Shown one piece after another: positions 25,935 through 54,218 of a DNA stretch of 64,000 bases; the stretch's first letter is position 1, and each line of letters begins with the position of its first letter. The DNA comes from Candidatus Lindowbacteria bacterium RIFCSPLOWO2_12_FULL_62_27 (GTDB lineage Bacteria; Lindowbacteria; 2-12-FULL-62-27): NCBI GenBank assembly GCA_001784175.1, contig MFPR01000013.1, positions 18,111 to 82,110 on the forward strand. The letters are read 5' to 3'. The notes beneath the pieces are model-generated. The model made no database searches, was not told the origin of the DNA, and saw only the letters and a list, made by a program, of their open reading frames with translations. Made by a program: the position numbers and the translations under genes.

Positions 25935-25961
25935 GATGCCCATGGTAAAGGAGACACGACC

Positions 25962-26480: not shown

Positions 26481-26484
26481 CGCC

Positions 26485-27054: not shown

Positions 27055-27058
27055 CCCC

Positions 27059-27373: not shown

Positions 27374-27375
27374 AC

Positions 27376-35963: not shown

Positions 35964-36600
35964 TCGTGTAAAAGGTGTCGACGCTGACCTTCGGATTCTG
36001 AAAGAGCTTGTCCCAGCCGTCCGGCGTCATGAAGGTCTTGATGATGGGCGCCCAGGCCATCATGGACCGGTGCTGGAGGTCGTTGGTGTAGGCGTCGACC
36101 TGGATGTAGACGCCCGCGCCTTTTCGCGCCACCCGCACGACCTCGCCGAACGTTTTCTGCACGTCGGACTCTGGCATGAAGTGCAGGGAGTTGATGAGAA
36201 GGATCAGGTCGAAGCTGTTGTCCGCGTACGGAAGGCGCGTCGGATAGCCGACGTCGATCAGGTCCCGGACCGTGTCCGGCGCGGTGTCCTTCGCGTACTG
36301 CGCGACCTCGAATCCGCGCACCGTGATCCCCGGCATCGCCAGCTTGAGGTCTTTCAGCAGAAATCCCTTCGCGCAGCCGATGTCCAGAACGCTCGATTGC
36401 GGCGTCAGGCCGTACTTCTCCTGCAGCTTTTTCGCGATCGCCGCCCACCGGCCGTCGTCCTTGTAGCCGCCGTAGCCGCGGCTCCGGGGGCCGTCGAAAT
36501 AATCCCTGCTGAATGTGCCGTCGATGTTGCGCGTGGCGGCGACGTCCGGCGGGAGGTTCTTGATCTGAATGGCGTCCACGCCCAGAAGGTTGTATCGCAT
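35938..36600 (-). CDS. SAM-dependent methyltransferase, class I
   Basis: A 220-residue methyltransferase. Motif I VLDIGCAKGFLLKDL, acidic loop after VRGFEVAQYA, motif II-like PYADNSFDLILLINSLHF. It resembles methyltransferases found in sugar clusters with the sequence DYFDGPRSRGYGGY near the N-terminus. Located directly downstream of the radical SAM gene on the same strand (18-base gap), so the pair may act on one substrate. Target is unknown. Confidence 0.83.
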   Translation of the reverse strand: MRYNLLGVDAIQIKNLPPDVAATRNIDGTFSRDYFDGPRSRGYGGYKDDGRWAAIAKKLQEKYGLTPQSSVLDIGCAKGFLLKDLKLAMPGITVRGFEVAQYAKDTAPDTVRDLIDVGYPTRLPYADNSFDLILLINSLHFMPESDVQKTFGEVVRVARKGAGVYIQVDAYTNDLQHRSMMAWAPIIKTFMTPDGWDKLFQNPKVSVDTFYTIIELENLR

Positions 36601-38480: not shown

Positions 38481-38551
38481 AAGGATCAAAGTTTATCACA
38501 CTATCGACCGAATTCAATCGGAACTGAAAGCCGGCCGCCCTTCAACCGGTT

Positions 38552-40378: not shown

Positions 40379-40475
40379 CCAAGCCTCCTTCCGCCGCAAC
40401 TCTATTGTAATTTGGGCTGAGTCTAACATAATATTTGGCCGATAATGGGAGTAATGGAGAAACAAGGAGGCGGCA
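40379..40475. promoter_or_regulatory. Divergent promoter region of SGNH-TPR and NTase-kinase genes
   Basis: A 97-bp AT-rich gap. Plus strand: TTGTAA and TAATAT separated by 18 bases near 40405-40435, then AGGAGG before the TTG start at 40476. Minus strand: TACAAT preceded 16 bases upstream by TTATGT, then AAGGAGG before the 40378 ATG. Both are partial matches to sigma-70 elements. Confidence 0.4.
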
Positions 40476-41999
40476 TTGAGCGCGCAGAAAATTCTGACGT
40501 TGGATGAACTTGAAGGGGCCGTCGCGGAGGCGCGGCGGGCCGGCAAACGGGTGGTGATGTGCCACGGCGTGTTTGACCTTGTGCATCCCGGCCACATCCT
40601 GCACTTTCAGGCGGCCCGCAAGGCGGGTGACCTGCTGGTCGTGACGGTCACGCCTGACCATTTCGTCAACAAGGGGCCCGGGCGGCCGGTGTTCGGGCAG
40701 CGGCTGCGGCTCGAGAGTCTCGCGGCGCTCGAGTGCGTCGATTATGTCGCCCTCAACGAATGGCCGACCGCCATCGACACGATTCACAAGATCAAACCCA
40801 GCATCTATGTCAAGGGCAGCGAGTATGCGGACGCGACGAGGGATATCACCGGGAAGATCTCCGAGGAGGAGGCTGCCGTCAAGGCGGCCGGCGGGGAGAT
40901 CAAGTTCACCTACGAGCAGACCTTCAGTTCCAGCTCCCTGCTCAACGAGTTTTTCAGGAAGCTTCCGCCGCGCGCGGAGACGTTCCTCAAGCAGTTCCGG
41001 GCGCGGTTCACGGCGAACGATGTCATCGAGGCCCTTCGGGGCCTCAAGACCGTTCGCGTGCTCGTGATCGGCGAGGCGATCGTCGACCAGTACTGCTACT
41101 GCGCGCCCCTGGGCAAGTCTCCGAAGGAGACGATCATCGCGACGAAGTATGCGTCCGAGGAAAATTTCGCCGGCGGGTCACTCGCGGTCGCCAACCACGT
41201 GGCCGGGTTTTGCGAGCAGGTTTCGCTGGTCACCTACCTCGGACATAACAGCCCCTTTGAGGATTTCATCCGCTCGAAATTGCGGCCCAACGTCAAACTC
41301 CATCCGGTCTACGCGGACGACCGGCCGACCATCGTCAAGCGGCGGTATGTGGACCCTGCGTTCCTGACGAAGATGTTCGAGGTGCAGCGCTTGGAGGACA
41401 CGCCGCTGCCGGCCTATCTGGAGGACGAAATGAGGGCGGTCGTGTCCCGCGAGCTTCAGCAGCACGACATGGTGATCGCCGCCGATTTCGGCCACGGGCT
41501 GTTTACCGACGCCGTCCGGCAGGTTCTATATGATTCCGGCAAATTTCTGGCCGTCAACACGCAGACCAACAGCGCCAATCTCGGGTTTAATCCCGCCACG
41601 AAGTACCAGAAGGCGGACTACGTGTGTGTCCATGAAGGGGAACTGAAACTCGCCCTCCGGGTCCAGTACGGCGACGTCCAGACGCTTACCGGCAACCTGC
41701 GCGCCGCCGTCCATACGCCCACCATCGTGGTCACGCGGGGACCCAACGGGTCGCTCATGATCACCCACGACGGCGGAGTCCACGAGGCGGCGGCGTTGTC
41801 GGGCAACGTGGTCGACCGGGTCGGCGCGGGCGACACGTTTTTCGCGCTGACGGCGCCGTGCGTGTACAAACGCGTGGATCCGGAGATCGTCGGCTTTGTC
41901 GGCAACTGCGCGGGCGCGATGGCGGTGGGAACCGTCTGCAACCGCGAACCGGTCGATCCGATCGCGTTCCAGAAATTCATCTCCCACCTTCTGGCCTGA
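40476..41999 (+). CDS. Nucleotidyltransferase-PfkB kinase fusion, HldE-like in reversed domain order
   Basis: A 507-residue bifunctional protein. N-terminal domain (about 1-165) is a RfaE2-type cytidylyltransferase-like fold: CHGVFDLVHPGHILHF, ALNEWPTAIDTIHKIKP, YVKGSEYAD, and SSSSLLNEFF. C-terminal domain (185-507) is a ribokinase/PfkB sugar kinase: LVIGEAIVDQYCY, NFAGGSLAVANHVAGF, and the catalytic DRVGAGDTFFALTAP. In E. coli HldE the kinase comes first. Expected reactions are phosphorylation and nucleotide activation of a sugar phosphate, probably a heptose. TTG start with AAGGAGG about 6 bases upstream. Confidence 0.86.
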   Translation: MSAQKILTLDELEGAVAEARRAGKRVVMCHGVFDLVHPGHILHFQAARKAGDLLVVTVTPDHFVNKGPGRPVFGQRLRLESLAALECVDYVALNEWPTAIDTIHKIKPSIYVKGSEYADATRDITGKISEEEAAVKAAGGEIKFTYEQTFSSSSLLNEFFRKLPPRAETFLKQFRARFTANDVIEALRGLKTVRVLVIGEAIVDQYCYCAPLGKSPKETIIATKYASEENFAGGSLAVANHVAGFCEQVSLVTYLGHNSPFEDFIRSKLRPNVKLHPVYADDRPTIVKRRYVDPAFLTKMFEVQRLEDTPLPAYLEDEMRAVVSRELQQHDMVIAADFGHGLFTDAVRQVLYDSGKFLAVNTQTNSANLGFNPATKYQKADYVCVHEGELKLALRVQYGDVQTLTGNLRAAVHTPTIVVTRGPNGSLMITHDGGVHEAAALSGNVVDRVGAGDTFFALTAPCVYKRVDPEIVGFVGNCAGAMAVGTVCNREPVDPIAFQKFISHLLA

Positions 42000-42019
42000 C
42001 CATCAAACTCGATCGACGG

Positions 42020-42955
42020 TTGATTTCGGCATGGCCGTTCAAGCCCTATGCCCACTATCGCGGGGAGGTGGGCGAGGGGGCGCTGTCCCGGTTGTTTGAA
42101 GCGCAGATCCGGCGGATGCGGCCGGACGACAAACGCCATACTTTCTACAGTGTCGGCAGAAAAGGCGCGCCGGGGGGCTTGGCGGCCCTCAGCCGCCTCG
42201 ACTGGGACGCAAAATATCTGAAGGCCGGCGCCGCGCGCATCGATTGGCTGATCGCGAGCGGGACCTATGAATCGCAGTTTGCGGTCAAGGAGACGCTGCT
42301 CAAGCAGATACTCAAAGCCTGCGTCGCCGCCCGCGTCCGGCATCTCTCCTGCCGCGTCGCGTCATCGGATCTGTCCGGCATTCACGTGCTCGAGCAAAAC
42401 GGATTTGTCATGGTCGACGGCATCCTGACGTTTTCGCTCGACACGCGCGGCTGGAAGCGGCCGAAACGGCAGGGCGGGTTCAGCGTCCGGCTCTGCCGGG
42501 AATCCGACATCAAACAGGTCCGCGAGATCGGCCGGCGTTCCTATATCTATGACCGGTTTCACTCAGATCCCAGGATTGCAAAAAAAGCCGCCGACCGCCT
42601 CCATGCGGCATGGGTTGAAAACGCGTGCCGGGGCAGTGCATCGGACGCCGTCGTGGTGGCGGAGGAAAAGGGCCGGATCCTCGGGTTTGTCACCTGCAAG
42701 ATCGATCCCTATTCGACGGAACACCTTGGCCTAAAGATCGGGACGATCGTCCTGGTGGCGACAGCCGGCGGCGGCCGGCACCGTGGCGTGGCACGCGAGA
42801 TGACCTACGGCGCAATCGCATGGTTCCGTGACCAGGGCTGCGACAAGGTCGAGGTCGGCACGCAGTTCCGGAACATCCCCGCCAGCCGCCTCTACGCGGC
42901 CTGCGGTTTCCCTCTCGTCGCCACCAGCCTCTCGCTCAGAAGATGGCTGGACTAA
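42020..42955 (+). CDS. Tandem GNAT-fold N-acetyltransferase
   Basis: About 311 residues. C-terminal half (about 150-311) is a clear GNAT domain of the WecD type: RLCRESDIKQVREIGRRSY, the acyl-CoA-binding region GGGRHRGVAREMTYGAI and VGTQFRNIPASRLYAACGF. The N-terminal half looks like a degenerate second GNAT domain (GLAALSRLDWDAKYL, GIHVLEQNGFV). Role: probably N-acetylation of an amino sugar made by the neighbouring DegT enzymes. The start is uncertain: TTG 42020 or CTG 41996, the latter overlapping the upstream TGA. Confidence 0.78.
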   Translation: MISAWPFKPYAHYRGEVGEGALSRLFEAQIRRMRPDDKRHTFYSVGRKGAPGGLAALSRLDWDAKYLKAGAARIDWLIASGTYESQFAVKETLLKQILKACVAARVRHLSCRVASSDLSGIHVLEQNGFVMVDGILTFSLDTRGWKRPKRQGGFSVRLCRESDIKQVREIGRRSYIYDRFHSDPRIAKKAADRLHAAWVENACRGSASDAVVVAEEKGRILGFVTCKIDPYSTEHLGLKIGTIVLVATAGGGRHRGVAREMTYGAIAWFRDQGCDKVEVGTQFRNIPASRLYAACGFPLVATSLSLRRWLD

Positions 42956-42956
42956 T

Positions 42957-44126
42957 TCAGGACTTCAGAATTTCCAACGCCACGTCCGCCACGTAGTTCG
43001 CGTCGGCGGCGGTCATGGCCGGGAAGAGCGGGAGGGAGACGATGCCGTCGTAGACTTTTTCGCAGATTGGGAAATCCCCCCGGCGGAGGCCGAAGGTTTT
43101 TTGGTAGTAGGAATGCAGGTGCAGCGGGATGAAGTGGACGCTCGCGCCGATGTTCATTTCCTTCAATTGGTCGATGAAGGCCGATCGGTCGATCCCGAAT
43201 TTCCGGAAATCGATCCAGAGCGGGTAGATGTGCCGGGCATAATCGGTCTGGCGGACCATCGGTGAAACCGGAGGGACCCTCACGCCTTCGAGCGACTGGA
43301 AGCGCCCGTCATACAGCAGCGCAAGCGTCCGGCGGATTTCGAGGAACCGGTCCAGCTTCAGGATCTGGTGCATGCCGATGGACGCCTCAACGTCCGTCAT
43401 GTTGCACTTGAATCCCGCCGCTGAAACGTCATACCGCCACGACCCTTCCGCGCTGTAACGCTTCCACGCGTCCTTGTCGATTCCGTGGAGCGAGAGAACC
43501 CGAATCCTGCCGGCGAGGTCGGCGTCGTCCGTCGAGACCGCGCCGCCTTCGACGGTCGTCATGTTTTTGGTCGGATAAAAGCTGAAGCAGGTGGCGTGGC
43601 TGAGCACGCCGATTTTTCGCCCGCGGTAGGACGACCCCAGCGCGTGCGCGGCATCCTCGATGACAAAGAGGTTGCGCCGCCTTGCGATCTCCAGGATCTC
43701 GTCCATTCTGGCCGGGTGGCCCGCGTAGTGGACGGGGACGATGGCCCGCGTCTTCGGCGTGATCTTCTCCTCGATTTTCCCCGGATCGATCGTGTAGCTC
43801 TCCTCCTCGATGTCGACCAGCACGGGTCGCGCGCCCGTGTGGACGACCGTGTTGGCGGTCGCGGCGAACGTGAAGGGCGTGGTGATGACCTCGTCGCCCG
43901 GGCCGACGCCGAGCGCCGCGAGCGACAGATGCAACGCGTGCGTGCAGGATGCGAGCGCGACGGCGTGCTTCGCGCCGACGTATTCGGCGATGCGCTGTTC
44001 AAACGTGTGGGCGCGCTTTCCCGTCGTGACCCAGCCGGAGTCGAGGCATTTCAGGACCTCCTCCTTCTCCTCATCGCCGATCATGGCGACGGCCAGCGGC
44101 AGAAAATCGGCGCGCTTGGCGATCAT
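42957..44126 (-). CDS. DegT/DnrJ/EryC1 sugar aminotransferase
   Basis: A 389-residue PLP enzyme that aminates a keto-sugar nucleotide, usually with glutamate. Motifs: GWVTTGKRAHTFEQRIAEY, VGPGDEVITTPFTFAATAN, VIEDAAHALGSSYRG and the Schiff-base lysine in FSFYPTKNMTT. C-terminal HFIPLHLHSYYQ is the usual active-site loop. Last gene of the 12-kb minus-strand sugar operon; ends two bases from the convergent acetyltransferase gene, which may acetylate its product. Confidence 0.93.
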   Translation of the reverse strand: MIAKRADFLPLAVAMIGDEEKEEVLKCLDSGWVTTGKRAHTFEQRIAEYVGAKHAVALASCTHALHLSLAALGVGPGDEVITTPFTFAATANTVVHTGARPVLVDIEEESYTIDPGKIEEKITPKTRAIVPVHYAGHPARMDEILEIARRRNLFVIEDAAHALGSSYRGRKIGVLSHATCFSFYPTKNMTTVEGGAVSTDDADLAGRIRVLSLHGIDKDAWKRYSAEGSWRYDVSAAGFKCNMTDVEASIGMHQILKLDRFLEIRRTLALLYDGRFQSLEGVRVPPVSPMVRQTDYARHIYPLWIDFRKFGIDRSAFIDQLKEMNIGASVHFIPLHLHSYYQKTFGLRRGDFPICEKVYDGIVSLPLFPAMTAADANYVADVALEILKS

Positions 44127-45097
44127 CGATAGAGATATTTGACGTTATAATAAACGTCGTCGCGGAAATCTCGAATCTGCCCGCTCCGGAAGGCCTCCGC
44201 CATCTCCCGGATGCCGTCCGCGATGGACTTCTGCGGCTTGAATCCCGTCAGCGCGGCGATCTTGTCGAAGTTGACGCGGTAGTCCCGCGCGTCCTCCATC
44301 GACGGGTGCTGCTCCACGCGCAGATCCTTGAAGATGGGGAGGAAAAAATCCGGGAGCCGCGCGATTTTGAAATTCAAGCCGTTGGCGCCGACGTTGAAAA
44401 TCTCGCTCCGGACCTGCCCCTCCTCCGCGCCGAGGACGGCGAGGATCGCGCGGGCGGCGTCCTGAACGTGGACGAAGGGCCGCCACTGGTCGCCGCCGTA
44501 GATCTGGATCCGGCCTTCGTTCACCGCGCGCGCGGTCAGATGGTTGATCACCAGGTCGAATCGCATGCGCGGGGAATGCCCAAAAAGCGTCGCGAGGCGC
44601 AGGATCACAAACGGCATCGACTCGGCCTCCTTGAACAGCACCTGCTCGGACATGATGCGGGTGCGCGCATAGAGCGAGATCGGCTCGAGCTTGGAGCCTT
44701 CGTTCAGCTCGAGATTGGAATTTGCGCCGTAGACGCTGCAGGAGGAGGTGAAGACGAGCCGTTGGATCTTGTAATATTTGCTGATCTCCACCAGGACCTT
44801 GGTCGACTCGTAGTTGGTGTTGAGCGTGTCGGTCTCGCTCAGATTGCACGCGGGATCGCCCACGATGGCGGCCAGCGCCACCACCGCGTCCCGGCCCTGG
44901 ATCGCCTTCACCACGTCGCCGATGTTGCAGATGTCGCCGGTCACCAGAGAAAATCCCGCGCGGCCGCGCAGGTCCCGCACGCCGGCGTCGCCGTAGCACA
45001 GCTTGTCCAGCACCGTCACCTCGTCGCCGCGGTCGAGCAGCATCCGGACGAGGTGCGATCCGAGGTATCCGGCGCCGCCGGTGACGAGGATTTTCAT
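44123..45097 (-). CDS. NAD-dependent epimerase/dehydratase; catalytic lysine replaced
   Basis: A 324-residue extended SDR: GGAGYLGSHLVRMLL, LAAIVGDPACN, FTSSCSVYGANS. The YxxxK motif reads YARTR, so arginine stands where lysine is expected. C-terminal end DDVYYNVKYL matches GDRRYYNIKTM of the SDR at 51482-52471, marking the two as paralogues. ATGA overlaps on both sides. Likely acts on a nucleotide sugar; the Lys to Arg change may mean altered or lost redox chemistry. Confidence 0.85.
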   Translation of the reverse strand: MKILVTGGAGYLGSHLVRMLLDRGDEVTVLDKLCYGDAGVRDLRGRAGFSLVTGDICNIGDVVKAIQGRDAVVALAAIVGDPACNLSETDTLNTNYESTKVLVEISKYYKIQRLVFTSSCSVYGANSNLELNEGSKLEPISLYARTRIMSEQVLFKEAESMPFVILRLATLFGHSPRMRFDLVINHLTARAVNEGRIQIYGGDQWRPFVHVQDAARAILAVLGAEEGQVRSEIFNVGANGLNFKIARLPDFFLPIFKDLRVEQHPSMEDARDYRVNFDKIAALTGFKPQKSIADGIREMAEAFRSGQIRDFRDDVYYNVKYLYR

Positions 45098-46131
45098 CGG
45101 CCGGGAAACTCGATGATCGCGCGGCCGGCCTTGCCCTGCTCGACGGCCTCGAGGGCGGCGTTGACGTCGTCCAGGCGAAACCGGTGCGTGATGAGTTCAT
45201 CGAGTTTGAGCTTGCCGGTCATATACAGGTCGACGTATCGCGGAAAATCCTGCGCGGGGTCGGTCGCGCCGCCCCAACTGCCGACGATTTGCTTGCCGCA
45301 GATCAGCATGAACGGATCGATCGAGATCGGCATGCCCTTGGCAAGATTCCCGATGAGAATCGCGAGGCCGCCGTCGGCACGGATCGACTGAAAGGCCTGC
45401 TCCATCGTCTCGCGAATGCCCGCGGCTTCGATCGCCACGTCCGCGCCCCGGCCGCCGGTCAGCTCCAGAACGGCCGGCACGACGTCCTGCGTTTTGGCGT
45501 TCACCACGTGCGTCGCACCAAAGGCGCGTGCAAGAGCCAGTTTGTGGTCATGGATGTCGACGGCGATGACCTTGCCGGCGTTGGTCAGGGCGGCGGCTTG
45601 GATCGCGCAAAGGCCGATGCCGCCGGCGCCGAACACCAGCACCGCGCTGCCGGGTTTGGGCCGGGCCGTATTGAAGACCGCGCCGGCGCCGGTCGCGACG
45701 GCGCAGCCGATGAGCGCGGCCTTGTCGAGCGGCATATCTTTTCGAATGGGCACGACGCGATTTTCCGCGACGACGGCCTCGTCCTGAAAGGTCGTGATCT
45801 GGCCCGCGTTGATCTTGCGGCCGCCCACGGCGTAGGCCGGCGGCGCCGCATTGATCCCGGGACCCTTGATCCACGTCAAAATCACATGGTCGCCCGCCTT
45901 CACGCGCGTGACGCCCGGGCCGATCGCCTCCACCACGCCGGCGCCCTCGTGGCCCATCGTGTGCGGCAGGAACTTGTCCGGGCCCCGGCAGCCCCGCGCC
46001 TCGGAAATCTGCGTGTGGCACACGCCGCTTGCGGCGATCCTCACCCGCACCTGCCCGTATCCGGGGTCGGCGGCGGTCAGGTCCTCCACCACGAGCGGCT
46101 TGTTCAACTCATACAAAATGGCAGCTCTCAT
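45094..46131 (-). CDS. Zinc-dependent alcohol dehydrogenase (MDR)
   Basis: A 345-residue medium-chain dehydrogenase. Catalytic zinc ligands are present: GVCHTQ, GHEGAGVVE and the cysteine in LIGCAVATGAG. The NAD(P)-binding motif is VFGAGGIGLCAIQ. The structural-zinc lobe that normally has four cysteines (after residue 90) is replaced by a cysteine-free segment (IKGPGINAAPPAYAVGG). In a sugar cluster it could oxidise or reduce a sugar alcohol/keto group. It overlaps the epimerase gene by four bases. Confidence 0.88.
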   Translation of the reverse strand: MRAAILYELNKPLVVEDLTAADPGYGQVRVRIAASGVCHTQISEARGCRGPDKFLPHTMGHEGAGVVEAIGPGVTRVKAGDHVILTWIKGPGINAAPPAYAVGGRKINAGQITTFQDEAVVAENRVVPIRKDMPLDKAALIGCAVATGAGAVFNTARPKPGSAVLVFGAGGIGLCAIQAAALTNAGKVIAVDIHDHKLALARAFGATHVVNAKTQDVVPAVLELTGGRGADVAIEAAGIRETMEQAFQSIRADGGLAILIGNLAKGMPISIDPFMLICGKQIVGSWGGATDPAQDFPRYVDLYMTGKLKLDELITHRFRLDDVNAALEAVEQGKAGRAIIEFPGR

Positions 46132-46146
46132 GACCGGATCGCCTCC

Positions 46147-47142
46147 TCAGACCTTGTGCTCATAGACCAGCGGCCGCGCCAGGATCGCGTCCCAGTTCTG
46201 CTCGACCCAGTCGATCACTTCCTGCAGGCCCCGGTCGAATGACTCCCGCGGATTCCAGCCGAGGTCCCGCATGGACTTGTTGTAGTCGAGCACGTATCGC
46301 GCGTCCTGTCCGAGGCGTTCCTCGACGGCGACGGCGCACGAATCGAAATCCTTCTTCATGAGCCGGCAGATGCGCTCCACAAGTTCCCGGATCGACAGCG
46401 AATGCCGGTCGCCCAGATGGTAGACGTCGCCCGGCTGCCCGACCTCGGCCGCCTTGATGACGGCGCGGGCCACGTCGCGCACGTGGATCCAGGTTTTGAC
46501 CGCCTGCCCGCCTCCGTGCAGCTCGAGCTTCTGGCCCTTTTTCATATAGATCACCGAGCGGGGGATGATCTTGTAGAGCTGCTGGTGCCGGCCGTAGACG
46601 TTGGTCGACCGGATAAAAATCGCCGGGAAGCCGAAATTTTTCCGAAGGGTCGTCAGATACATGTCTCCGGCCGCCTTCGACGCCGCGTAGGGCGTGCTCG
46701 GATTGTACGGCGCCGACTCATCCAGCGCCCCGTTGCAGGTGCCGTAGATTTCCGGCGTGGAAATCTGGATGAAGCTTTTCAGATATTTTTTTTCGCGCAG
46801 GCTGCTTCCCAGGGCCACGACGCCGAGCGTGTTGACCTGAAAATACCCCAGCGGCTGGTAATTGCTGAGACCGACTTCGCTCAGCGCGGCGACGTTGACC
46901 ACGTGGTCCGGATGAAACTCGTCCAGCGCCGCCACCAGCCGGTCCGGCTCGCGGTAGAGGTCGATCTGCTGGAATTTGAACTTCGGCGCCGCCCGCTTCT
47001 TGTAAGGGAGAAAAAGGTCGGAATACTCGGCCGACCGGCTGACGCCGAGAACCGTGTTGTTCGGATTTTCCAAAAAGGCGTCGACGATGTGCGAGCCGGT
47101 GAAACAGTTGCTCCCGATCACCGCGACTCGTTTGCCGATCAT
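46147..47142 (-). CDS. Nucleotide-sugar dehydratase/epimerase-like SDR
   Basis: A 331-residue extended SDR resembling dTDP-glucose 4,6-dehydratase. Rossmann motif GSNCFTGSHIVDAF (unusual cysteine and Thr), catalytic YAASK, and QISTPEIYGT where RmlB has TDE; the aspartate acid is proline here. C-terminal part (TWIHVRDVARAVIKA, YNKSMRDLGWNPRESF) is typical. It may make a 4-keto sugar or act as an epimerase or reductase; the altered TDE triad leaves that open. Confidence 0.82.
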   Translation of the reverse strand: MIGKRVAVIGSNCFTGSHIVDAFLENPNNTVLGVSRSAEYSDLFLPYKKRAAPKFKFQQIDLYREPDRLVAALDEFHPDHVVNVAALSEVGLSNYQPLGYFQVNTLGVVALGSSLREKKYLKSFIQISTPEIYGTCNGALDESAPYNPSTPYAASKAAGDMYLTTLRKNFGFPAIFIRSTNVYGRHQQLYKIIPRSVIYMKKGQKLELHGGGQAVKTWIHVRDVARAVIKAAEVGQPGDVYHLGDRHSLSIRELVERICRLMKKDFDSCAVAVEERLGQDARYVLDYNKSMRDLGWNPRESFDRGLQEVIDWVEQNWDAILARPLVYEHKV

Positions 47143-47147
47143 GGGCT

Positions 47148-48287
47148 TCAGAACGGCCCGAAAAATTGCGGTGCGGTGGGCGTCGTCATGCCGGCGATCG
47201 ACGCCTCCACGGCGGGCGGGACCTTCCCGCCCAGTCCCATCACGTCACAGGCGGCGCGGGCGATGTCGAGGGCGCCGGGGTAATATATTTTTTCCAGCGC
47301 CGACGTCGTCGGCGTCGGAACGTCCGGCAGCGTCACCCGGCGAATGGGCGCCTTCAGGGCGCCGAAACATTCCTCGGCCGCGAGCGCGGCGATTTCCGCC
47401 GAAAAGCCGCAGGTCTTCCACGCCGTGTCGACGATCACCAGCCGGCCGGTCTTGCGGACCGATTCCAGGATGAGGTTCACGTCGAGAGGCTTGATCGTCC
47501 TCGGGTCGACGATCTCCGCGTCGATGCCGGCCTCCGCCAGCGCCTGGCGCGCGCGGATGCTTTCGAAGACCATGAGCGACACGGCCACGACGGTCACGTC
47601 CTTGCCCTCGCATTTCACCACGCCCCGGCCCAGCGGGACCTTGTAGTGCCCGTCCGGCACGTCGTCTTCGATTTCGTAAAGGCGGCGATGCTCGATGAAG
47701 ATGACCGGGTTGTTGTCCTCGATGCTCGAAATCAGCAGGCCCTTGGCGTCGTACGCGGAACTCGGCATCACGACCTTGAGGCCGGGGATGTGCGCGAAGA
47801 CCGACTGCAGGCTCTGCGAATGCTGCGGCCCCTGGCCCCAGCCGCACCCGACGAGGGCGCGGATGGTGATCGGCACGCTCTGCCGGCCGCCCGAGGCGTA
47901 GCAGCGTTTGGCCGCGTGGTTGGCGATCTGGTCCATCGCGTAGAGCGTGAAATCAATCCGCTGGTGCGTCATGATCGGCCGCATGCCCGCCAGCGCGGCG
48001 CCGATGATCACGCCGGTCATGCCGTTTTCCGAAAGCGGGATGTCGAACACGCGCTCGGGGCCGAACCGCTCCTTCAGGCCGGCGGTCGAACCGAAAATCA
48101 GTTTCGGATCGTCCACGCCCTCGCCCATGATGAAGGTGCGGTCGTCCCGGGCCATCGCCTCGTGCAGCGCCTCGTTGATCGCCTGGCGGAACGCGCGCAT
48201 CCGGACGGCGTCGGAGATGTCGCCCGGCGCAGCCGGCTCGGCGTGCCGGGCGGGAACGCCGGCGCGGCGCGACACGGGAACGCTCAT
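47148..48287 (-). CDS. Alpha-ketoacid dehydrogenase E1 beta subunit-like protein
   Basis: A 379-residue transketolase-fold subunit, beta half of a PDH/acetoin-type E1. MRAFRQAINEALHEAM, FIMGEGVDDPKLIFG, DIPLSENGMTGVIIGAALAG and the C-terminal domain (RLVIVDTAWKTCGFSAEIAA) are typical. Start ATG 48287 overlaps the alpha-subunit TGA. There is no E2 lipoyl-transferase or E3 gene nearby; the setting is purely nucleotide-sugar enzymes. Antibiotic clusters such as avilamycin use E1-like pairs (AviB1/B2) to add a two-carbon unit to a sugar, a parallel worth testing. Confidence 0.9.
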   Translation of the reverse strand: MSVPVSRRAGVPARHAEPAAPGDISDAVRMRAFRQAINEALHEAMARDDRTFIMGEGVDDPKLIFGSTAGLKERFGPERVFDIPLSENGMTGVIIGAALAGMRPIMTHQRIDFTLYAMDQIANHAAKRCYASGGRQSVPITIRALVGCGWGQGPQHSQSLQSVFAHIPGLKVVMPSSAYDAKGLLISSIEDNNPVIFIEHRRLYEIEDDVPDGHYKVPLGRGVVKCEGKDVTVVAVSLMVFESIRARQALAEAGIDAEIVDPRTIKPLDVNLILESVRKTGRLVIVDTAWKTCGFSAEIAALAAEECFGALKAPIRRVTLPDVPTPTTSALEKIYYPGALDIARAACDVMGLGGKVPPAVEASIAGMTTPTAPQFFGPF

Positions 48288-49258
48288 GGCGCGTACACCC
48301 CGGCTTCGAGTTCTTCGGGCGCCGGAAACGGGCTCTCCTTGGCAAATCGCACCGCCGCAACGATCTCGGCGTCCACCTCGGCCTTCATCCGGTGGATGTC
48401 CTCCTCGCTCAAAAGGCCTTCCTCCACCAGCCGGTGCTGCAGCGTCCGGACGGGACACCGGGCGATCCACTCGTCCAGCTCCTCCGGGTCGCGCGTGACG
48501 TCACTCGACGCGCCGACGTGCTCCAGCCAGCGGTACGTCCGGCACTCGATGAGGGACGGGCCCGCGCCCCGACGCGCGCGCATGACGGCTTCGCGCATGG
48601 CTCGATAGACCTCAAGGGCATCGTTGCCGTCCACGCGCACGCCCGGCATCGCGTAGGCGTGGGCGCGCTCGTATATATTGTCCGCGCACTGGCGCTGGCT
48701 GAAGTGCGTGTAGACGGCGTAAAAATTGTTTTCGCAAACAAAGACCACCGGCAATTTTTTCAACGACGCGAAGTTCAAACTCTCGTGGAACACGCCCTCC
48801 TCCGTGCCGCCGTCGCCGAAGACCGCCACCGCTACGCGGTCCGACCGGCGCAGGCGCTCGGCCAGGCCGGCGCCGGCGGCCATCGGAATGGTGCCGCCGA
48901 CGAGCGCGGAGGTGCAGAGCAGGCCCTCGTCGGGCGCGATCAGTTGCATCGAGCCGCCCTTGCCGCGCGTGCATCCGGTGCGCTTGCCGTACAATTCCGC
49001 CATCATCGCGTTCAAATCGCCGCCCAGCGACAGATACAGACCGTGAGCGCGGTACGTACCGAAGACCGAGTCGCCCTTCGACAGATTGGCGCAGACGCCG
49101 GCGGCGACGGCTTCCTGGCCGATATAGAGATGCGTCGGGCAGCGCATTTCCTGTTCGGGATAGAGGACGGCGATTTTTTCCTCGATCCGGCGGATCCGAA
49201 GCATCGTCCGGTACAGATTTTTTTTCAGATCGGGCGTGACGGCGTCCACGGCGTCCAT
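48284..49258 (-). CDS. Alpha-ketoacid dehydrogenase E1 alpha subunit-like protein
   Basis: A 324-residue TPP-binding subunit. The TPP motif is complete: GDGGTEEG, about 20 residues, then CENN. HLYIGQEAVAAG, KGGSMQLI and TYRWLEHVGAS match the PDH/acetoin E1 alpha family. The regulatory phosphorylation sites of mitochondrial PDH are not expected. Pairs with the E1 beta gene overlapping it. Likely substrate is pyruvate, with the acetyl group delivered to a sugar rather than to lipoate, given the missing E2; that is inference. Confidence 0.9.
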   Translation of the reverse strand: MDAVDAVTPDLKKNLYRTMLRIRRIEEKIAVLYPEQEMRCPTHLYIGQEAVAAGVCANLSKGDSVFGTYRAHGLYLSLGGDLNAMMAELYGKRTGCTRGKGGSMQLIAPDEGLLCTSALVGGTIPMAAGAGLAERLRRSDRVAVAVFGDGGTEEGVFHESLNFASLKKLPVVFVCENNFYAVYTHFSQRQCADNIYERAHAYAMPGVRVDGNDALEVYRAMREAVMRARRGAGPSLIECRTYRWLEHVGASSDVTRDPEELDEWIARCPVRTLQHRLVEEGLLSEEDIHRMKAEVDAEIVAAVRFAKESPFPAPEELEAGVYAP

Positions 49259-49263
49259 GCGGC

Positions 49264-50373
49264 CTATGCCTTTCGCTTATAAAACTGCCGGATGGCCTTG
49301 CACACGGAGTCCACCTGCGCGTTCGTCAGATACTGGTGCACCGGGATCGACAGGATGCGCCCGGCGAGGCGCTCGCAGACGGGGAAATCGCCCTTGTGAT
49401 AGCCGAGCGCCAGGCTGCAGGGCTGAAGGTGGAGCGGGATCGGATAATGAATCTTGGACTCGATCCCGTGCCGGGCCAGATGCGCCTGCAATTCGTCCCG
49501 CCGGTCGCACTGGATGACGAAGAGATGCCAGGTGTGAAACTCGTGCGGCGCCTCGGCCGGGCACTCGACCACGTTCGAAAGCGCCCGGCGATACCGCGCC
49601 GCAATCTGTCGCCGCCGGCGGATGGTTTTGTCCAGGTGCGCGAGCCGGCAGTTGAGGACGGCGGCCTGGAGGGTGTCCAATCGCGAGTTCAATCCCCAGA
49701 CGGCGACCTCGTCCCTGGTCCGAAGGCCGTGGTTCCGCAGCAGCTTCATTTTTTCGCACAGCGCGCCGTCGTTCGTCGTGATCGCGCCGGCGTCGCCGGC
49801 CGCGTTCAGATTTTTCAAAGGATGCAGGCTGAAACAACCCATCACGCCAAACGATCCCGACGGCCGGTTCCGGTACAACGACCCGACCGACTGCGCGGCG
49901 TCCTCGATCACGTAAAGGCGGCGCCGCTCGGCGATTTTCAGGATCGGGTCCATGTCGGCGACGCGGCCCGTCAGATGCACCGGCAAAATCGCGCGGGTCT
50001 TCGGCGTGATCGCGCGCTCGATCCGTTCCGGATCGATGTTGAGGTCGGGCCCCACGTCGGCGAAGACCGGCCGGGCCCCGGCGAGGGCGATGCTCGAGGC
50101 CGACGCGATAAACGAGTTCGGCGCCGTGATGACCTCGTCCCCCGCGCCGATCCCGAGCGCCTTGAAGGCCAAAATCAGCGCGTCGGTGCCGTTGGCCACG
50201 CCGATCGCGTGCTGGACGCCGCACAGCGCGGCAAACCGCTTCTCAAACGCTTCGACCTCTTCGCCCAGAATGAAATTGCCCCGCGTGAGCACCCGATCCA
50301 CCGCGCGCCGCACCTCGGCGCGCATCGACTTGTGCTGCGCCGGAAAATCGACGTAGGACACGCGGGCGTTCAT
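49264..50373 (-). CDS. DegT/DnrJ/EryC1 sugar aminotransferase
   Basis: A 369-residue PLP aminotransferase: LTRGNFILGEEVEAFE, ITAPNSFIASASS, VIEDAAQSVGSLY, and the Schiff-base lysine in FSLHPLKNLNAAGDAG. KIHYPIPLHLQP is the C-terminal substrate loop. Close relative of the next gene upstream (50373-51485), with shared LHPLKNLN and GDAG motifs, suggesting tandem duplication. The ATG at 50373 shares bases with the preceding TAA (TAATG); a longer frame is noise. Confidence 0.92.
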   Translation of the reverse strand: MNARVSYVDFPAQHKSMRAEVRRAVDRVLTRGNFILGEEVEAFEKRFAALCGVQHAIGVANGTDALILAFKALGIGAGDEVITAPNSFIASASSIALAGARPVFADVGPDLNIDPERIERAITPKTRAILPVHLTGRVADMDPILKIAERRRLYVIEDAAQSVGSLYRNRPSGSFGVMGCFSLHPLKNLNAAGDAGAITTNDGALCEKMKLLRNHGLRTRDEVAVWGLNSRLDTLQAAVLNCRLAHLDKTIRRRRQIAARYRRALSNVVECPAEAPHEFHTWHLFVIQCDRRDELQAHLARHGIESKIHYPIPLHLQPCSLALGYHKGDFPVCERLAGRILSIPVHQYLTNAQVDSVCKAIRQFYKRKA

Positions 50374-51485
50374 TAATTTCGCTTGTAAAACTCGCGCACG
50401 ACGTCGATCGCGTATCGCACTTGTTTCGCCGTCAGATGCTGGTCGGCCGGCAGGGTCAGAATGCATTTGGCCTGCCGGTCGGTCTCCGGGAAATCGCCCA
50501 TCTTGTAGCCGAGCGGCGCGAGGCCCTTCTGGAGGTAGAGGGGAATCGGATAGTGAATTTTCGCCTCGACGCCGTTTTTGAGGAGAAACTCATACAGCGC
50601 GTCGCGCTTGCGCGCTTCGATCATGTACAGGTGATACACGCGCCGGACGTTGGGCCGGCGCGGCGGGAGGCGGATGTCGCTGGACATTTTAGAAAACGCC
50701 TCGTCATACATCGCGGCATGATCGATCCGTTTCTGGGTGATCATGTGGACCTGCTTGATCAGCCAGTTGCCGACGATGGCCTGAATGGAGTCCAGCCGGC
50801 TGTTATGGCCGAAGATTTCGACCTCGTCACGGTTGGCGAGGCCGTGGTTCCGGAGCAGGCGCAGGCGCGCGGCGATGCCGCCGGAATTGGTCACGACGAT
50901 GCCGGCGTCGCCCCAGACGTTCAGGTTTTTCAGCGGATGAAGGCTGTATCCGGTCGCGGCGCCGAACGTGCCGGCGGTCTTGCCGTCGATGCTCGCGAGG
51001 ATCGCCTGGCAGGCGTCCTCGATCACGACGAGGTTGCGCCGGCCGGCGATTTTCATGATGGCCGGCATGTCCGCCGCTTCGCCGGTGAGATGCACCGGCA
51101 GGATCGCCTTCGTCTTCGGCGTGATCGCCGCTTCGATCAGCGACGCGTCCATCGTGAAATACGGCGTGACGTCGACCAGGACCGGCCGAGCGCCGATTTC
51201 GGCGATGGCGCCGACGGTCGCGATGAAGGTGTTGGCGGCGGTGATGACCTCGTCGCCGTAACCGACGCCGGCGGCTTTCAGCGCCAGCTTCAGGGCGTCG
51301 GTGCCCGATCCGACCCCGACCGCATGGCGAGTCCCGATCATCGCCGCAAAGGACTTTTCAAACTGCGCGACCTCGGGCCCCAGCGTGAACTGGCAGGTCT
51401 TGAGGTGACGCCGGATCTCCGCCAGAATGCGGCCCGGCCTGGCGAATTGCTGCGGCAAATATGAAAACCGGACTTTCCATTTCAT
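50373..51485 (-). CDS. DegT/DnrJ/EryC1 sugar aminotransferase
   Basis: A 370-residue paralogue of the neighbouring enzyme. Motifs: CQFTLGPEVAQFEKSF, ITAANTFIATVGAIA, VIEDACQAILASIDG and Schiff-base lysine in YSLHPLKNLNVWGDAG; KIHYPIPLYLQK near the end. The two enzymes probably aminate different carbons or intermediates. The ATG overlaps the upstream SDR stop by four bases. Confidence 0.93.
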   Translation of the reverse strand: MKWKVRFSYLPQQFARPGRILAEIRRHLKTCQFTLGPEVAQFEKSFAAMIGTRHAVGVGSGTDALKLALKAAGVGYGDEVITAANTFIATVGAIAEIGARPVLVDVTPYFTMDASLIEAAITPKTKAILPVHLTGEAADMPAIMKIAGRRNLVVIEDACQAILASIDGKTAGTFGAATGYSLHPLKNLNVWGDAGIVVTNSGGIAARLRLLRNHGLANRDEVEIFGHNSRLDSIQAIVGNWLIKQVHMITQKRIDHAAMYDEAFSKMSSDIRLPPRRPNVRRVYHLYMIEARKRDALYEFLLKNGVEAKIHYPIPLYLQKGLAPLGYKMGDFPETDRQAKCILTLPADQHLTAKQVRYAIDVVREFYKRN

Positions 51486-52471
51486 CTTAATCCCACCGCC
51501 TGCATTGTTTTGATGTTGTAGTACCGCCGGTCCCCCATGGGGTCGGGCATGAGGCCGCCGGCGTAGGCGTCACAGATGCTCCGCACGGCGTCGCGGATCG
51601 TGTGCCGCGCGCGAAATCCCAGAAGATTGGCGATCCGGTCGGAATTGATGTGGTACGACCGGTTGTCCACCGTCGGCTCCACCTTGATCTGGACGGCCGG
51701 GTCGCGGACCTCCGCGCGGACCATTTCGGCGATGTCGGCGACCGAATGGTTTTCGTAGCCGGCGTTGAAGGTCTGCCCGGCGACTTTGTCCGCCGGCGCC
51801 TCGAGGAGAATTCGATAGGCCTCGATCATGTCCCTGATGTTGATGTTCGGCCGAAGCTGCCCGCCGCCGTGAACGGTGATCAGTTTTCGGACGAGCGCGT
51901 GGATGGAGAGAATGTTGACGGTAAGATCGAGCCTCATGCGCGGCGCGTAGCCGCAGACGGTCGCGGGCCGGATCACCACCCGCTCGCAGCCGCCGAGGTC
52001 GGCCGCCTGGAGGTCCTGCTCGCACAGGAGCTTGAATTTCGAATAATCGGTCAGCGGCAGGCACGGAGTGTCCTCCCGGACGTTCGGCACGTCCTGCACG
52101 CCGTAGACGCTGGAACTGGAAGCATAGATGAACCGCCGGGCGCCGCAGCCGCGCACGGCGGCGAGGATCTTCGCGAACGCGTCGTAATTAATGGATTTCC
52201 CAAGATGCGGGTCCAGCTCGAAACTCGGATCGTTCGAAATGCACGCGAGATGAATGACCGCCTCGGCGCCTTTGAACGCCTTCGCCAGGTCCGCCGGGTT
52301 TCGGATATCGCCCTTGACGCACGCCAAGCGGCCCGGCTGACGGAGGCCGTTGAAAACGTTCTCCCCGTACAGGAAGAGATCCAGCACGGTCACCTCGTGG
52401 CCGAGGTCGATCAGATACGGCACGAGCGCGCTGCCGACATACCCGGCGCCGCCGGTGATTGCGACGCGCAT
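51482..52471 (-). CDS. NAD-dependent epimerase/dehydratase (SDR)
   Basis: A 329-residue extended SDR with intact motifs: GGAGYVGSALVPYL, LACISNDPSFEL, YASSSSVYGVQD and catalytic YSKFK. The C-terminus GDRRYYNIKTM mirrors the SDR at 44123-45097. ATG at 52471 shares bases with the isomerase TAA (TAATG). Nucleotide-sugar epimerase or reductase; substrate not predictable from sequence. Confidence 0.9.
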   Translation of the reverse strand: MRVAITGGAGYVGSALVPYLIDLGHEVTVLDLFLYGENVFNGLRQPGRLACVKGDIRNPADLAKAFKGAEAVIHLACISNDPSFELDPHLGKSINYDAFAKILAAVRGCGARRFIYASSSSVYGVQDVPNVREDTPCLPLTDYSKFKLLCEQDLQAADLGGCERVVIRPATVCGYAPRMRLDLTVNILSIHALVRKLITVHGGGQLRPNINIRDMIEAYRILLEAPADKVAGQTFNAGYENHSVADIAEMVRAEVRDPAVQIKVEPTVDNRSYHINSDRIANLLGFRARHTIRDAVRSICDAYAGGLMPDPMGDRRYYNIKTMQAVGLR

Positions 52472-53091
52472 TACCAGTACGCCCCCACCTTCGGCTTGAA
52501 CGACTTCGACAGCATCGAGGCCTCGAGGATCGAGTGGAGGAGCGTCAGGTGCGCGACCTCGACGACGCCGTAGGAACGCGATTTCACGTAAAAATTCAGG
52601 TCCCCGAGCGCGCGCAGGGGGTTCGATTCGTCGAAGCCCGACAGCGTGATGACCCGGCATTTCTTCGCGCGGCCGGCCTCCACGCCGTTGATCACATTGC
52701 GTGACTTGCCCGAACTGCTGATCGCCACGAGCGGGTCACCGGCGGCGGCGAAGCGTTTGATCGGCTCGGAGAAGAGATGCTCGAAGCCGTAGTCGTTCGC
52801 GACGCAGGTCATGAGGCTCGGTTCGTTGAAGGTGACGGCCGGAAAGCCGCCGTTTTTCCAGTAGTCGATCGCCATGTGCGCCGAAATCGCGGCGCTGCCG
52901 CCATTGCCGATGAAGATGACCTTGCGGCCGGACGCGCACGCCGACTGAATCAGCGCCAGGCCCTTCGCCAAGCCCTCCGGCAGGGTCACCGCGCCGCCCG
53001 ACCGGGTCGTCGCGACGGACCGCGCGGTCGCGCGGCCGAGATCGGAGATGAACGTCCGGGCCAGCCGGCCGTGCGCTGCGTTGCGTGTCAT
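52471..53091 (-). CDS. SIS-domain isomerase, GmhA-like
   Basis: A 206-residue sugar isomerase domain protein. FIGNGGSAAISAHMAIDYW matches the phosphate-binding and active-site region of sedoheptulose-7-phosphate isomerase (GmhA), with ISSSGKSRNVINGV as the second SIS motif and VEVAHLTLLHSILE the C-terminal helix. With the HldE-like fusion at 40476 this suggests a heptose route. GmhB phosphatase is not visible. First gene after a repeat-filled gap that separates it from the upstream epimerase. Confidence 0.85.
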   Translation of the reverse strand: MTRNAAHGRLARTFISDLGRATARSVATTRSGGAVTLPEGLAKGLALIQSACASGRKVIFIGNGGSAAISAHMAIDYWKNGGFPAVTFNEPSLMTCVANDYGFEHLFSEPIKRFAAAGDPLVAISSSGKSRNVINGVEAGRAKKCRVITLSGFDESNPLRALGDLNFYVKSRSYGVVEVAHLTLLHSILEASMLSKSFKPKVGAYW

Positions 53092-53100
53092 GGTCTACAC

Positions 53101-53216
53101 TCCTCCTCTCCCCCCGAAGGGGGGAGAGGATTGAGGTGAGGGGGGCGCGGACGGCGACGACCGTAATCTGCCACCCTCACCCCAACCCTCTCCCGCCAAG
53201 GGCGGGAGAGGGGGAA
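53101..53216. repeat. Two GC-rich hairpin repeat elements
   Basis: Two perfect 12-bp stems: TCCTCTCCCCCC with loop GAA (53104-53130) and CCCTCTCCCGCC with loop AAG (53186-53212), each linked to a GTGAGGGG/CCCTCACCCC arm, so the whole is a larger inverted arrangement. The second hairpin is nearly identical to the one upstream of thrS. They fill the 146-bp gap between the epimerase and isomerase genes and may attenuate or stabilise the transcript. Confidence 0.85.
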
Positions 53217-53237
53217 TCCCTGGTAAACAGCCACGTT

Positions 53238-54218
53238 TCACGACAGATACCGGAACCAGTCGCGGGTGGCGACGGCGATCGAGTCGGGCGTCCAGACGGG
53301 GGCGTCCCGCCAGTAATCGATGTTCCGTAACATCTCCGCCACGCCCTCCTCGATGGAAACCCGGGGGCGCCATCCCAGCAGGTCCCGGATTTTCGAAATG
53401 TCCGCGTGCGTGCAGTCAGGCTCGCCGGGACGCTTCGGGACATGCACGATGTCGCCCTCCAGAAGCTCCGCGATGCGGTTCACGCTGGTGGGGCCGCCCG
53501 AGCCGACGTTGAAAATTTCCTGCTGCGCGTCCGCGCGCGCCGCGGTCACAAACGCGTCGACGACGTCCGTCACAAACGTGAAGTCCCGCGTCTGCGTCCC
53601 GTCCCCCACAACCGTGAACGGCCGGCCCTTCAGTTTCTGGGCGAGAAATACGCCGAAGACCGCGCCGTACGTTCCCGACGTGCGCGCCCGCGGGCCGTAG
53701 ACGTTGAACAGCCGAAGCGACACCACCGGCAGGTGATAGACCTGGCCCCAGTGAAACGCGCACTGTTCGCCCAGGTTTTTTGTGAGGGCATACGGATACT
53801 GCGGGCGGATCGGCGCGCGCTCCGGTGTCGGAAACATGTCGGCCATGCCGTAACAGGACGAGGAGGCCGTGTAGAGAAACCGGCGCACGCCCGCACGCCG
53901 GGACATCTCCAACACCGACACCGTGCCCGCGACGTTCGAACGGAAATAATCCATCGGCCGATCAATCGACGGCACGACGTCGGCGAGGGCGGCAAAGTGA
54001 AAGACCCAGTCGACGCCTTCGAAGCTCGGCGCGATCGCGGGGTCGTTGATGTCGGCCTGCACGACGCGCAGGGGCTTGCTCCCCTGCAGGTGCTTGAGGT
54101 TGTCCAGCCGCCCGGTGCTCAGATTGTCGATCACGGTCACATCATGGCCGTCCTTGAGCAGCCGTTCCGTACAGTGGCTCCCGATAAACCCGGCGCCGCC
54201 CGTGACTACAGCTTTCAT
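53238..54218 (-). CDS. UDP-glucose 4-epimerase-like SDR
   Basis: A 326-residue extended SDR, closest in pattern to UDP-sugar 4-epimerases: [49 protein letters not shown], catalytic YALTK and [25 protein letters not shown] is the substrate-binding strand. First gene of the minus-strand sugar operon as far as visible; the 136-bp region upstream holds a hairpin repeat and the end of the giant gene. Substrate could be UDP-glucose, UDP-GlcNAc or a cluster-specific sugar. Confidence 0.9.

What the first reader, a model, noticed from the sequence alone, without database searches (positions are those of the whole stretch)
40476..54218. Sugar cluster combining heptose-type enzymes with an E1 alpha/beta TPP pair: possible branched higher-carbon amino sugar
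The two facing operons hold a GmhA-like isomerase, a heptose-type nucleotidyltransferase/kinase, four SDR enzymes, three DegT aminotransferases, a zinc dehydrogenase, a GNAT and a pyruvate-dehydrogenase-like E1 pair with no E2 or E3. From established work, E1-like pairs in avilamycin-type pathways (AviB1/AviB2) attach a two-carbon unit to a keto sugar. Here the inference is an activated amino sugar of seven or more carbons, with a possible acetyl-type branch, for surface glycan. I know of no described pathway with this set.
Basis: partly seen in the sequence, partly recalled or inferred. Interest (0 to 1): 0.85.

Follow-up and report, generated by a model that had tools for sequence, protein, structure and literature searches.

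The report
Orphan pyruvate-dehydrogenase pair in heptose cluster
This is a surface-sugar gene cluster in which two halves of a pyruvate-dehydrogenase-like enzyme have been recruited into a pathway that activates and remodels a seven-carbon sugar; the same set recurs in many bacterial phyla, including a cultured soil bacterium, and its product is unknown.

Summary
Window 40476-54218 holds a reversed HldE-like fusion, a GmhA-like SIS protein, four SDRs, three DegT aminotransferases, a zinc dehydrogenase, a GNAT and an E1 alpha/beta pair without E2/E3. The genome's only E2 gene lies elsewhere, beside another E1 pair. The pair belongs to a monophyletic E1 clade with its own invariant residues. Loci classified by motif alone: a heptose-type kinase lies within about 20 kb in 12/17 motif-positive loci against 0/24 motif-negative ones; E2 in 0/17 against 13/24. 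Two unrelated kinase folds (PfkB HldE-like, GHMP HddA-like) accompany it. SDR1 and SDR3 are closest to Cj1427, a GDP-heptose C4-dehydrogenase. An eight-gene core is collinear on an Azospirillum oryzae plasmid and nearly complete in a Coxiellaceae MAG. C. burnetii's O-antigen region has a reversed HldE, phosphoheptose isomerase, epimerases and 'pyruvate dehydrogenases', but no pathway has been assigned there. [quoted passage not shown] That step, the substrate and the product are inferred. In many related loci a split transketolase takes the E1 pair's place.

The parts
40476..41999 (+). Reversed HldE-like fusion (HldErev): N-terminal nucleotidyltransferase (GVFDLVHPGH motif), C-terminal PfkB kinase (GAGD motif)
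   Evidence: Pfam/NCBIfam; motifs conserved in alignment A1; solved relatives include heptose-7-phosphate kinase 4e84; relatives in 10 of 145 sampled genomes and 544 candidate stretches in genome contigs, list truncated
41996..42955 (+). GNAT acetyltransferase (start uncertain); not part of the recurrent set
   Evidence: Pfam; not among recurrent families
42957..44126 (-). DegT1, PseC/ArnB-like aminotransferase
   Evidence: PseC model 362 bits, below its cut-off of 423.5
44123..45097 (-). SDR1, closest solved structure Cj1427 (GDP-heptose C4-dehydrogenase)
   Evidence: 6vo6, 146 bits; identity of 6vo6; function of Cj1427
45094..46131 (-). Zinc-dependent alcohol dehydrogenase
   Evidence: recurs with split transketolase or E1
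46147..47142 (-). SDR2, RmlB-like NDP-sugar 4,6-dehydratase-type SDR
   Evidence: (203 bits to dTDP_gluc_dehyt, below cut-off)
47148..48287 (-). E1 beta subunit of the sugar-associated clade; C-terminal tail ending FFGPF
   Evidence: ATG overlaps the E1a stop
48284..49258 (-). E1 alpha subunit of the sugar-associated clade; motif RWLEHVG in place of the PDH RxxGHSMSD loop
49264..50373 (-). DegT2 aminotransferase, closest to 3-keto-sugar aminotransferases (DesV, QdtB, WbpE type)
50373..51485 (-). DegT3 aminotransferase, paired with DegT2 in related loci
51482..52471 (-). SDR3, Cj1427-like NDP-heptose C4-dehydrogenase type
   Evidence: top six structural hits are Cj1427 chains, 29-30% identity
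52471..53091 (-). SIS protein of GmhA (sedoheptulose-7-phosphate isomerase) type
   Evidence: all below the curated GmhA cut-off
53238..54218 (-). SDR4, GalE-like epimerase; the most constant neighbour of HldErev
   Evidence: similar gene in 55 of 80 HldErev loci, 48 of them at 45% identity or more
35938..36600 (-). SAM methyltransferase of the family (MT220) that recurs in these clusters
36618..38489 (-). B12-binding radical SAM protein beside the cluster
38552..40597 (-). GDSL-type hydrolase with TPR repeats beside the cluster (ORF as listed; its 5' end overlaps HldErev, so the start is uncertain)
   Evidence: an SGNH/GDSL and a TPR gene also flank the Azospirillum copy
32397..34901 (+). O-antigen ligase-like (Wzy_C) membrane protein with TPR, supports a surface-glycan setting

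Best explanation
A nucleotide-heptose pathway for a surface glycan. Proposed order: the SIS isomerase makes a heptose 7-phosphate from sedoheptulose 7-phosphate; the reversed HldE phosphorylates C1 and, after removal of the 7-phosphate by a HAD phosphatase encoded elsewhere, transfers a nucleotide (probably ADP); SDR4 epimerises the NDP-heptose; SDR3 and/or SDR1 oxidise C4, as Cj1427 does; DegT enzymes add amino groups. The orphan E1 alpha/beta pair decarboxylates pyruvate and passes the two-carbon unit not to lipoamide but to a carbonyl of the activated keto-heptose, giving a C-acetyl branch that the zinc dehydrogenase or an SDR may reduce, as proposed for AviB1/AviB2 and Pau11/Pau12. Shown here by sequence: gene content and order, the clade, conserved TPP and catalytic residues, absence of E2, linkage with heptose-type kinases and Cj1427-like SDRs. 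Inferred: every substrate, the two-carbon transfer, the acceptor position and the product.
For: Genome has a separate E1 pair with E2 on C14 and only one E2 gene. E1s with the motif form one clade in a 58-sequence tree (SH-like support 0.93). Motif-positive against motif-negative E1 loci: heptose-type kinase 12/17 v 0/24 (9/14 v 0/24, p=1e-5, for loci found by E1 alone), DegT 11/17 v 0/24, Cj1427-like SDR 8/17 v 0/24, E2 0/17 v 13/24. The kinase is PfkB HldE-like in some loci and GHMP HddA-like in others (HddA model is the top hit, 142-160 bits; solved heptose kinases 4n3o, 3k85). Catalytic residues kept in 35/35, with new beta His91/Arg93/Arg184 in 34-35 of 35 that are rare or absent in other E1b. 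Collinear eight-gene operon in A. oryzae; near-complete set in a Coxiellaceae MAG. SDR3 model closest to Cj1427. Precedent: pyruvate-dehydrogenase-like AviB1/AviB2 and Pau11/Pau12 for two-carbon branches; a pau11 mutant makes no paulomycin (PMC4425429).
Against: No activity is tested. HldErev, SIS and HddA-like proteins score below the curated NCBIfam cut-offs, so substrate identity is not secured. In 34 of 89 HldErev neighbourhoods a split transketolase, not E1, is present and none of the 89 has both, which fits a precursor-making role as well as a branching one; two further loci (L157, L168) do carry both. No phosphatase of GmhB type lies in the cluster.
Confidence: 0.5

Rival explanations
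1. The E1 pair makes a sugar-phosphate precursor before nucleotide activation, acting like a transketolase or DXS (pyruvate or another two-carbon donor plus an aldose phosphate), in the slot that a split transketolase fills in related loci.
For: Split transketolase and E1 pair occupy the same kind of neighbourhood and none of 89 loci has both, against about 9.6 expected (P=4e-7, relatedness not corrected for); transaldolase and a second reversed HldE lie beside the second E1 pair on C4; transketolase/DXS are the next-nearest folds of E1b.
Against: Two loci carry both E1 and transketolase (L157, L168). A 1-deoxy ketose from pyruvate could not be isomerised to an aldose by a GmhA-type enzyme. 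E1 also sits with HddA-type kinases in loci where no transketolase was found.
Confidence: 0.22
2. The module acts on a hexose or other sugar; the GmhA and HldE likeness is only of fold, and the E1 pair branches an NDP-keto-hexose as in avilamycin or paulomycin.
For: Scores for GmhA and HldE domains are well below curated cut-offs (88.8 v 209.45; 107.9 v 181.5; 95.4 v 345). SDR2 is RmlB-like. DegT2 resembles hexose 3-aminotransferases.
Against: Independent association with HddA-like kinases and with GmhA/GmhB/HddC-like genes, and with Cj1427-like SDRs.
Confidence: 0.15
3. The pair is an ordinary second pyruvate or 2-oxo acid dehydrogenase E1 that borrows the E2/E3 encoded on C14.
For: E1a and E1b match PDH models strongly (337 bits each) and keep the catalytic residues.
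Against: E1 clade never found within about 20 kb of E2 (0/17 v 13/24), separate clade, altered alpha loop, new beta residues and a C-terminal FxGPF tail in 23/35 (0/23 controls); found in glycan-type clusters.
Confidence: 0.07
4. Chain extension rather than branching: the zinc dehydrogenase makes a terminal aldehyde and E1 adds two carbons there, giving a nonose-type chain.
For: Zinc ADH lies in the same operon and near E1 in several loci (L104, L111, G386).
Against: ADH also accompanies the transketolase version and is missing from most E1 loci (5 of 25 have it).
Confidence: 0.06

Closest known systems
Coxiella burnetii O-antigen region (CBU0674 phosphoheptose isomerase, CBU0676/0677 epimerases, CBU0678 reversed HldE, CBU0686/0692/0693 'pyruvate dehydrogenases')
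   Same: Same reversed domain order of HldE, same companion classes, O-antigen role shown genetically for CBU0678 (PMC5843353); a Coxiellaceae MAG has the window's set with motif-positive E1
   Different: No pathway assigned; the E1-like genes were read as fatty-acid metabolism (PMC5423948). The C. burnetii genes themselves were not compared here
AviB1/AviB2 (avilamycin) and Pau11/Pau12 (paulomycin)
   Same: E1 alpha/beta-like pair in a sugar pathway; [quoted passage not shown]
   Different: They work on TDP-hexose-derived 4-keto sugars (proposed to be already attached); no heptose enzymes. Common descent with the window's clade not tested
Cj1427 pathway of Campylobacter jejuni capsule heptoses
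   Same: SDR1 and SDR3 are closest to Cj1427, which oxidises C4 of GDP-heptose
   Different: C. jejuni uses GDP-heptose and then epimerases and C4-reductases; no E1 pair or DegT3/DegT2 pair is part of that described scheme
HldE / GmhA of ADP-heptose synthesis
   Same: Kinase and nucleotidyltransferase domains and the SIS isomerase are of these families
   Different: Domain order reversed, scores below curated cut-offs, surrounded by modifying enzymes; no GmhB in the cluster
YerE (yersiniose)
   Same: TPP-dependent attachment of an acetyl branch to a keto sugar (PMC4753412)
   Different: Single TPP-flavoprotein, not an E1 pair

Membership tests
Pyruvate dehydrogenase complex E1 | TPP motif GDG..NN and catalytic alpha His, beta Glu and beta His | tested here: met
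   GDG kept (Asp or Glu at the middle position) and NN, alpha His, beta Glu, beta His in 35/35 clade members
Pyruvate dehydrogenase complex E1 | E2 (and E3) encoded with it | tested here: not met
   Only E2 in genome is on C14 with another E1 pair; 0/17 clade loci have E2 nearby v 13/24 controls
Pyruvate dehydrogenase complex E1 | NCBIfam equivalog score | tested here: inconclusive
   E1a 337 bits v cut-off 393.85 (not reached); E1b passes the subfamily model (337.6 v 321), fails the equivalog (318.6 v 454)
AviB1/AviB2-type two-carbon branching pair | E1-like pair without E2 inside an NDP-sugar cluster | tested here: met
AviB1/AviB2-type two-carbon branching pair | Same clade as AviB1/AviB2 or Pau11/Pau12 | not tested
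[quoted passage not shown]
   Needs enzymology
HldE (bifunctional heptose kinase/adenylyltransferase) | Kinase domain first, adenylyltransferase second | tested here: not met
   Order reversed
HldE (bifunctional heptose kinase/adenylyltransferase) | HxGH-type nucleotidyltransferase motif and PfkB GAGD motif | tested here: met
   HPGH and GAGD in the window protein; H37, G39, G450, G452 and D453 invariant in alignment A1
HldE (bifunctional heptose kinase/adenylyltransferase) | Curated score cut-offs | tested here: not met
   107.9 v 181.5 and 95.4 v 345
Reversed HldE of the CBU0678 kind | Nucleotidyltransferase-kinase order in an O-antigen-type region with phosphoheptose isomerase and epimerases | tested here: met
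   Window; Coxiellaceae MAG homologue 42% identical over nearly the full length with the same kinds of neighbours; C. burnetii itself from PMC5843353
GmhA | Curated GmhA score | tested here: not met
   88.8 v 209.45 bits, although GmhA is the best family
Cj1427-type NDP-heptose C4-dehydrogenase | Closest solved fold and YxxxK dyad | tested here: met
   SDR3: and invariant Y143/K147; SDR1: (sequence only)
Cj1427-type NDP-heptose C4-dehydrogenase | Oxidation of NDP-heptose with 2-oxoglutarate recycling | not testable with these tools
   Needs assay

The most novel reading that the evidence does not exclude
A widespread, unassigned class of surface sugars built from nucleotide-activated heptose by TPP-dependent two-carbon transfer (acetyl from pyruvate by a dedicated E1 clade, or a glycolyl unit by a split transketolase in sister clusters), then aminated: branched or extended amino sugars of about nine carbons; the unexplained part of the Coxiella burnetii O-antigen region belongs to the same class.
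Probability: 0.4. Interest if true: 0.78.

Novelty: new variant of a known kind. Interest (0 to 1): 0.62.

Why it matters
It identifies an E1 clade that was never found with E2 in the loci read and that travels with heptose-activation genes in many phyla, which a genome annotator would file as central metabolism (as happened for C. burnetii). It gives a candidate pathway for unknown higher-carbon amino sugars, a candidate role for the reversed HldE whose function is stated as unknown, and a cultured soil bacterium (Azospirillum oryzae) carrying the whole core operon in which it can be tested.

Tried and rejected
AF2 model of E1b placed the C-terminal tail with low confidence, so no claim is made that it blocks E2 docking. 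Strict mutual exclusion of E1 and transketolase was considered and softened after L157 and L168 turned up with both. GNAT was dropped from the core because it does not recur. Literature searches combining PDH E1 with O-antigen, nucleotide sugars or heptose found no paper on such a pathway; only open-licence papers are held. Papers on C. burnetii virenose and streptose biosynthesis did not mention the E1 genes at the terms searched. Phage records hold only ordinary E1/acetoin-type homologues.
Full report
Check of the observation. SIS to DegT1 (53091 to 42957, - strand) is a run of ten genes that overlap by 1-4 nt or lie at most 15 nt apart; SDR4 lies 146 nt upstream. The E1b ATG overlaps the E1a stop. 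The + strand operon (HldErev, GNAT) runs towards it. The fusion has the nucleotidyltransferase domain first and the PfkB kinase second. The genome (4.39 Mb, 94% complete) has one E2 gene, on contig C14, beside a different E1 pair. An O-antigen-ligase-like gene lies at 32397-34901, which fits a surface-glycan setting.

A second set in the same genome. Contig C4 carries another E1 pair (E1a 40%, E1b 51% identical to the window's) about 3 kb from a second reversed HldE (29% identical) and a transaldolase; GmhA-, HddC- and HddA-like genes lie 6-11 kb away. The relative G002 has the orthologous HldE and transaldolase next to SDR3-SDR4 and then DegT2-DegT3-E1a-E1b, followed by HddA-, NTP-transferase-, GmhA- and GmhB-like genes.

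Conservation of the set. A scan of genome contigs with an alignment of nine HldErev proteins returned 80 loci from well over a dozen phyla, mostly MAGs (two are labelled archaeal and may be binning errors). Around them, in loci that are often truncated, SDR4-like genes occur in 55, SDR3-like in 42 and SIS in 39. Adding nine other loci, a TPP enzyme is present in most: a split transketolase in 34 of 89 and an E1 pair or one of its genes in 25 (two of these, L067 and L114, are weak), never both (P=4e-7 by hypergeometric test, relatedness not corrected for). Two loci found later through E1 have both (L157, L168; P for at most 2 overlaps 2e-5), so exclusion is strong but not strict. Loci L065, L070, L075, L087, L099 and L111 repeat most of the window's gene set; in L079, L088, L104 and L062 HldErev is followed directly by E1a and E1b.

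The reverse test. Starting from E1a alone in 386 genomes sampled across the domain, loci were classified only by a motif in E1a (R-x-x-E/G-H-C/V/A-G in place of the PDH RxxGHSMSD loop). In motif-positive loci, other than the window, a heptose-type kinase lies within about 20 kb in 12 of 17, against 0 of 24 motif-negative (p=8e-7); in the subset found purely through E1, 9 of 14 (p=1e-5). E2 is nearby in 0 of 17 against 13 of 24, DegT in 11 against 0, Cj1427-like SDR in 8 against 0. The kinase is HldErev in some and a GHMP kinase in others; the latter score best with the HddA heptose-7-phosphate kinase model (142-160 bits, below its cut-off of 600) and with solved heptose kinases. That two unrelated kinase folds of the heptose pathways accompany the same E1 clade is the best argument for heptose. 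In the tree of 58 concatenated E1a+E1b sequences all motif-positive pairs form one clade (SH-like support 0.93) with HldE- and HddA-linked members intermixed (FastTree, one method, sampled loci).

Residues. TPP-binding and catalytic positions are kept in the clade; beta Arg93 is Arg in 35/35 (0/23 in the other E1b), beta His91 in 34/35 (0/23), beta Arg184 in 34/35 (3/23), and a C-terminal FxGP(F/Y) ending in 23/35 (0/23). By inference, extra basic residues suit a phosphorylated or nucleotide-bound acceptor better than lipoamide; their place in the active site was not modelled.

Companion enzymes. SDR1 and SDR3 both have Cj1427 (6vo6/6vo8) as best solved relative, and the AF2 model of SDR3 (mean pLDDT 89.6) ranks Cj1427 chains first. 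Cj1427 oxidises C4 of GDP-D-glycero-D-manno-heptose using 2-oxoglutarate (PMC10680097). DegT2's best solved relatives are 3uwc and the DesV, QdtB and WbpE types, which from general knowledge act at C3 of keto sugars. SDR4 is GalE-like, SDR2 RmlB-like.

Cultured relatives and literature. Azospirillum oryzae KACC 14407 plasmid NZ_CP054615.1 has SDR4-HldErev-SIS-SDR3-E1a-E1b-DegT3-DegT2 in one operon (67, 45, 45, 54, 49, 51, 61, 53% identity), with radical SAM, GDSL and TPR genes nearby. A. lipoferum 4B plasmid p6 has the E1 pair with an SDR1-like gene, a DegT gene and a GmhB-HddC-type fusion. A Coxiellaceae MAG has SIS-SDR3-SDR2-DegT3-DegT2-methyltransferase-E1a-E1b-ADH and, about 12 kb on, HldErev. 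In C. burnetii the reversed HldE CBU0678 is needed for full-length LPS, lies in an operon with CBU0676/0677 near phosphoheptose isomerase CBU0674, and its function is stated as unknown (PMC5843353); [quoted passage not shown] The proposals read here for its O-antigen sugar virenose go through GDP-mannose and do not use a heptose kinase or an E1. That these E1 genes belong to the same clade is likely but was not tested on C. burnetii itself.

Interpretation. Shown: a conserved heptose-type activation and modification module with a dedicated E1 clade. [quoted passage not shown] For this speak the absence of E2, the presence of a C4-oxidising SDR type, the swap with transketolase (also a two-carbon-transfer enzyme), and the AviB1/AviB2 and Pau11/Pau12 precedents (PMC4425429, PMC4753412). 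Against a firm claim stand the low family scores, the lack of any assay, and the alternative that E1 or transketolase makes a precursor.

Novelty. The parts are known kinds (reversed HldE, Cj1427-like SDR, E1-like branching pairs). The combination, its spread and the E1 clade's association with heptose genes appear undescribed in the literature that could be searched, which excludes most subscription journals.

Noticed in passing
G000 contig C4 ~427000-507000 (L012-L015): A second surface-glycan region with another E1 pair, a second reversed HldE, a transaldolase, a PseB-like SDR, and GmhA-, HddA- and HddC-like genes.
   Followed up: partly
L158:5948-7573, L159:8953-10473, L163:12503-14161, L164:14255-15736, L014:7775-9364: A B12-binding radical SAM family (47-54% identical to the copy on C4) lies in the E1 clusters that use the HddA-like kinase instead of HldE; possible C-methylation of the sugar.
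   Followed up: no
34 HldErev loci, e.g. L069, L094, G001 contig C73: A split transketolase (N and C halves), often with zinc ADH, RmlB-like SDR and methyltransferase, forms a sister version of the cluster without E1.
   Followed up: partly
window 54355-63993(-): Very long ORF (3212 aa) of repeated units of about 100 aa with a C-terminal segment like a FlgD-type sorting domain, probably a secreted surface protein; runs close to the contig end.
   Followed up: no
window 24861-32368(+): Respiratory complex I-type genes (NADHdh, several Proton_antipo_M) directly beside the glycan genes.
   Followed up: no
L111:1697-2677, L157:14287-15309, L124, L113, L096: A family of about 325 aa with weak deoxyhypusine synthase/ArgZ-like similarity recurs next to HldErev in about ten loci; function unknown.
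   Followed up: no
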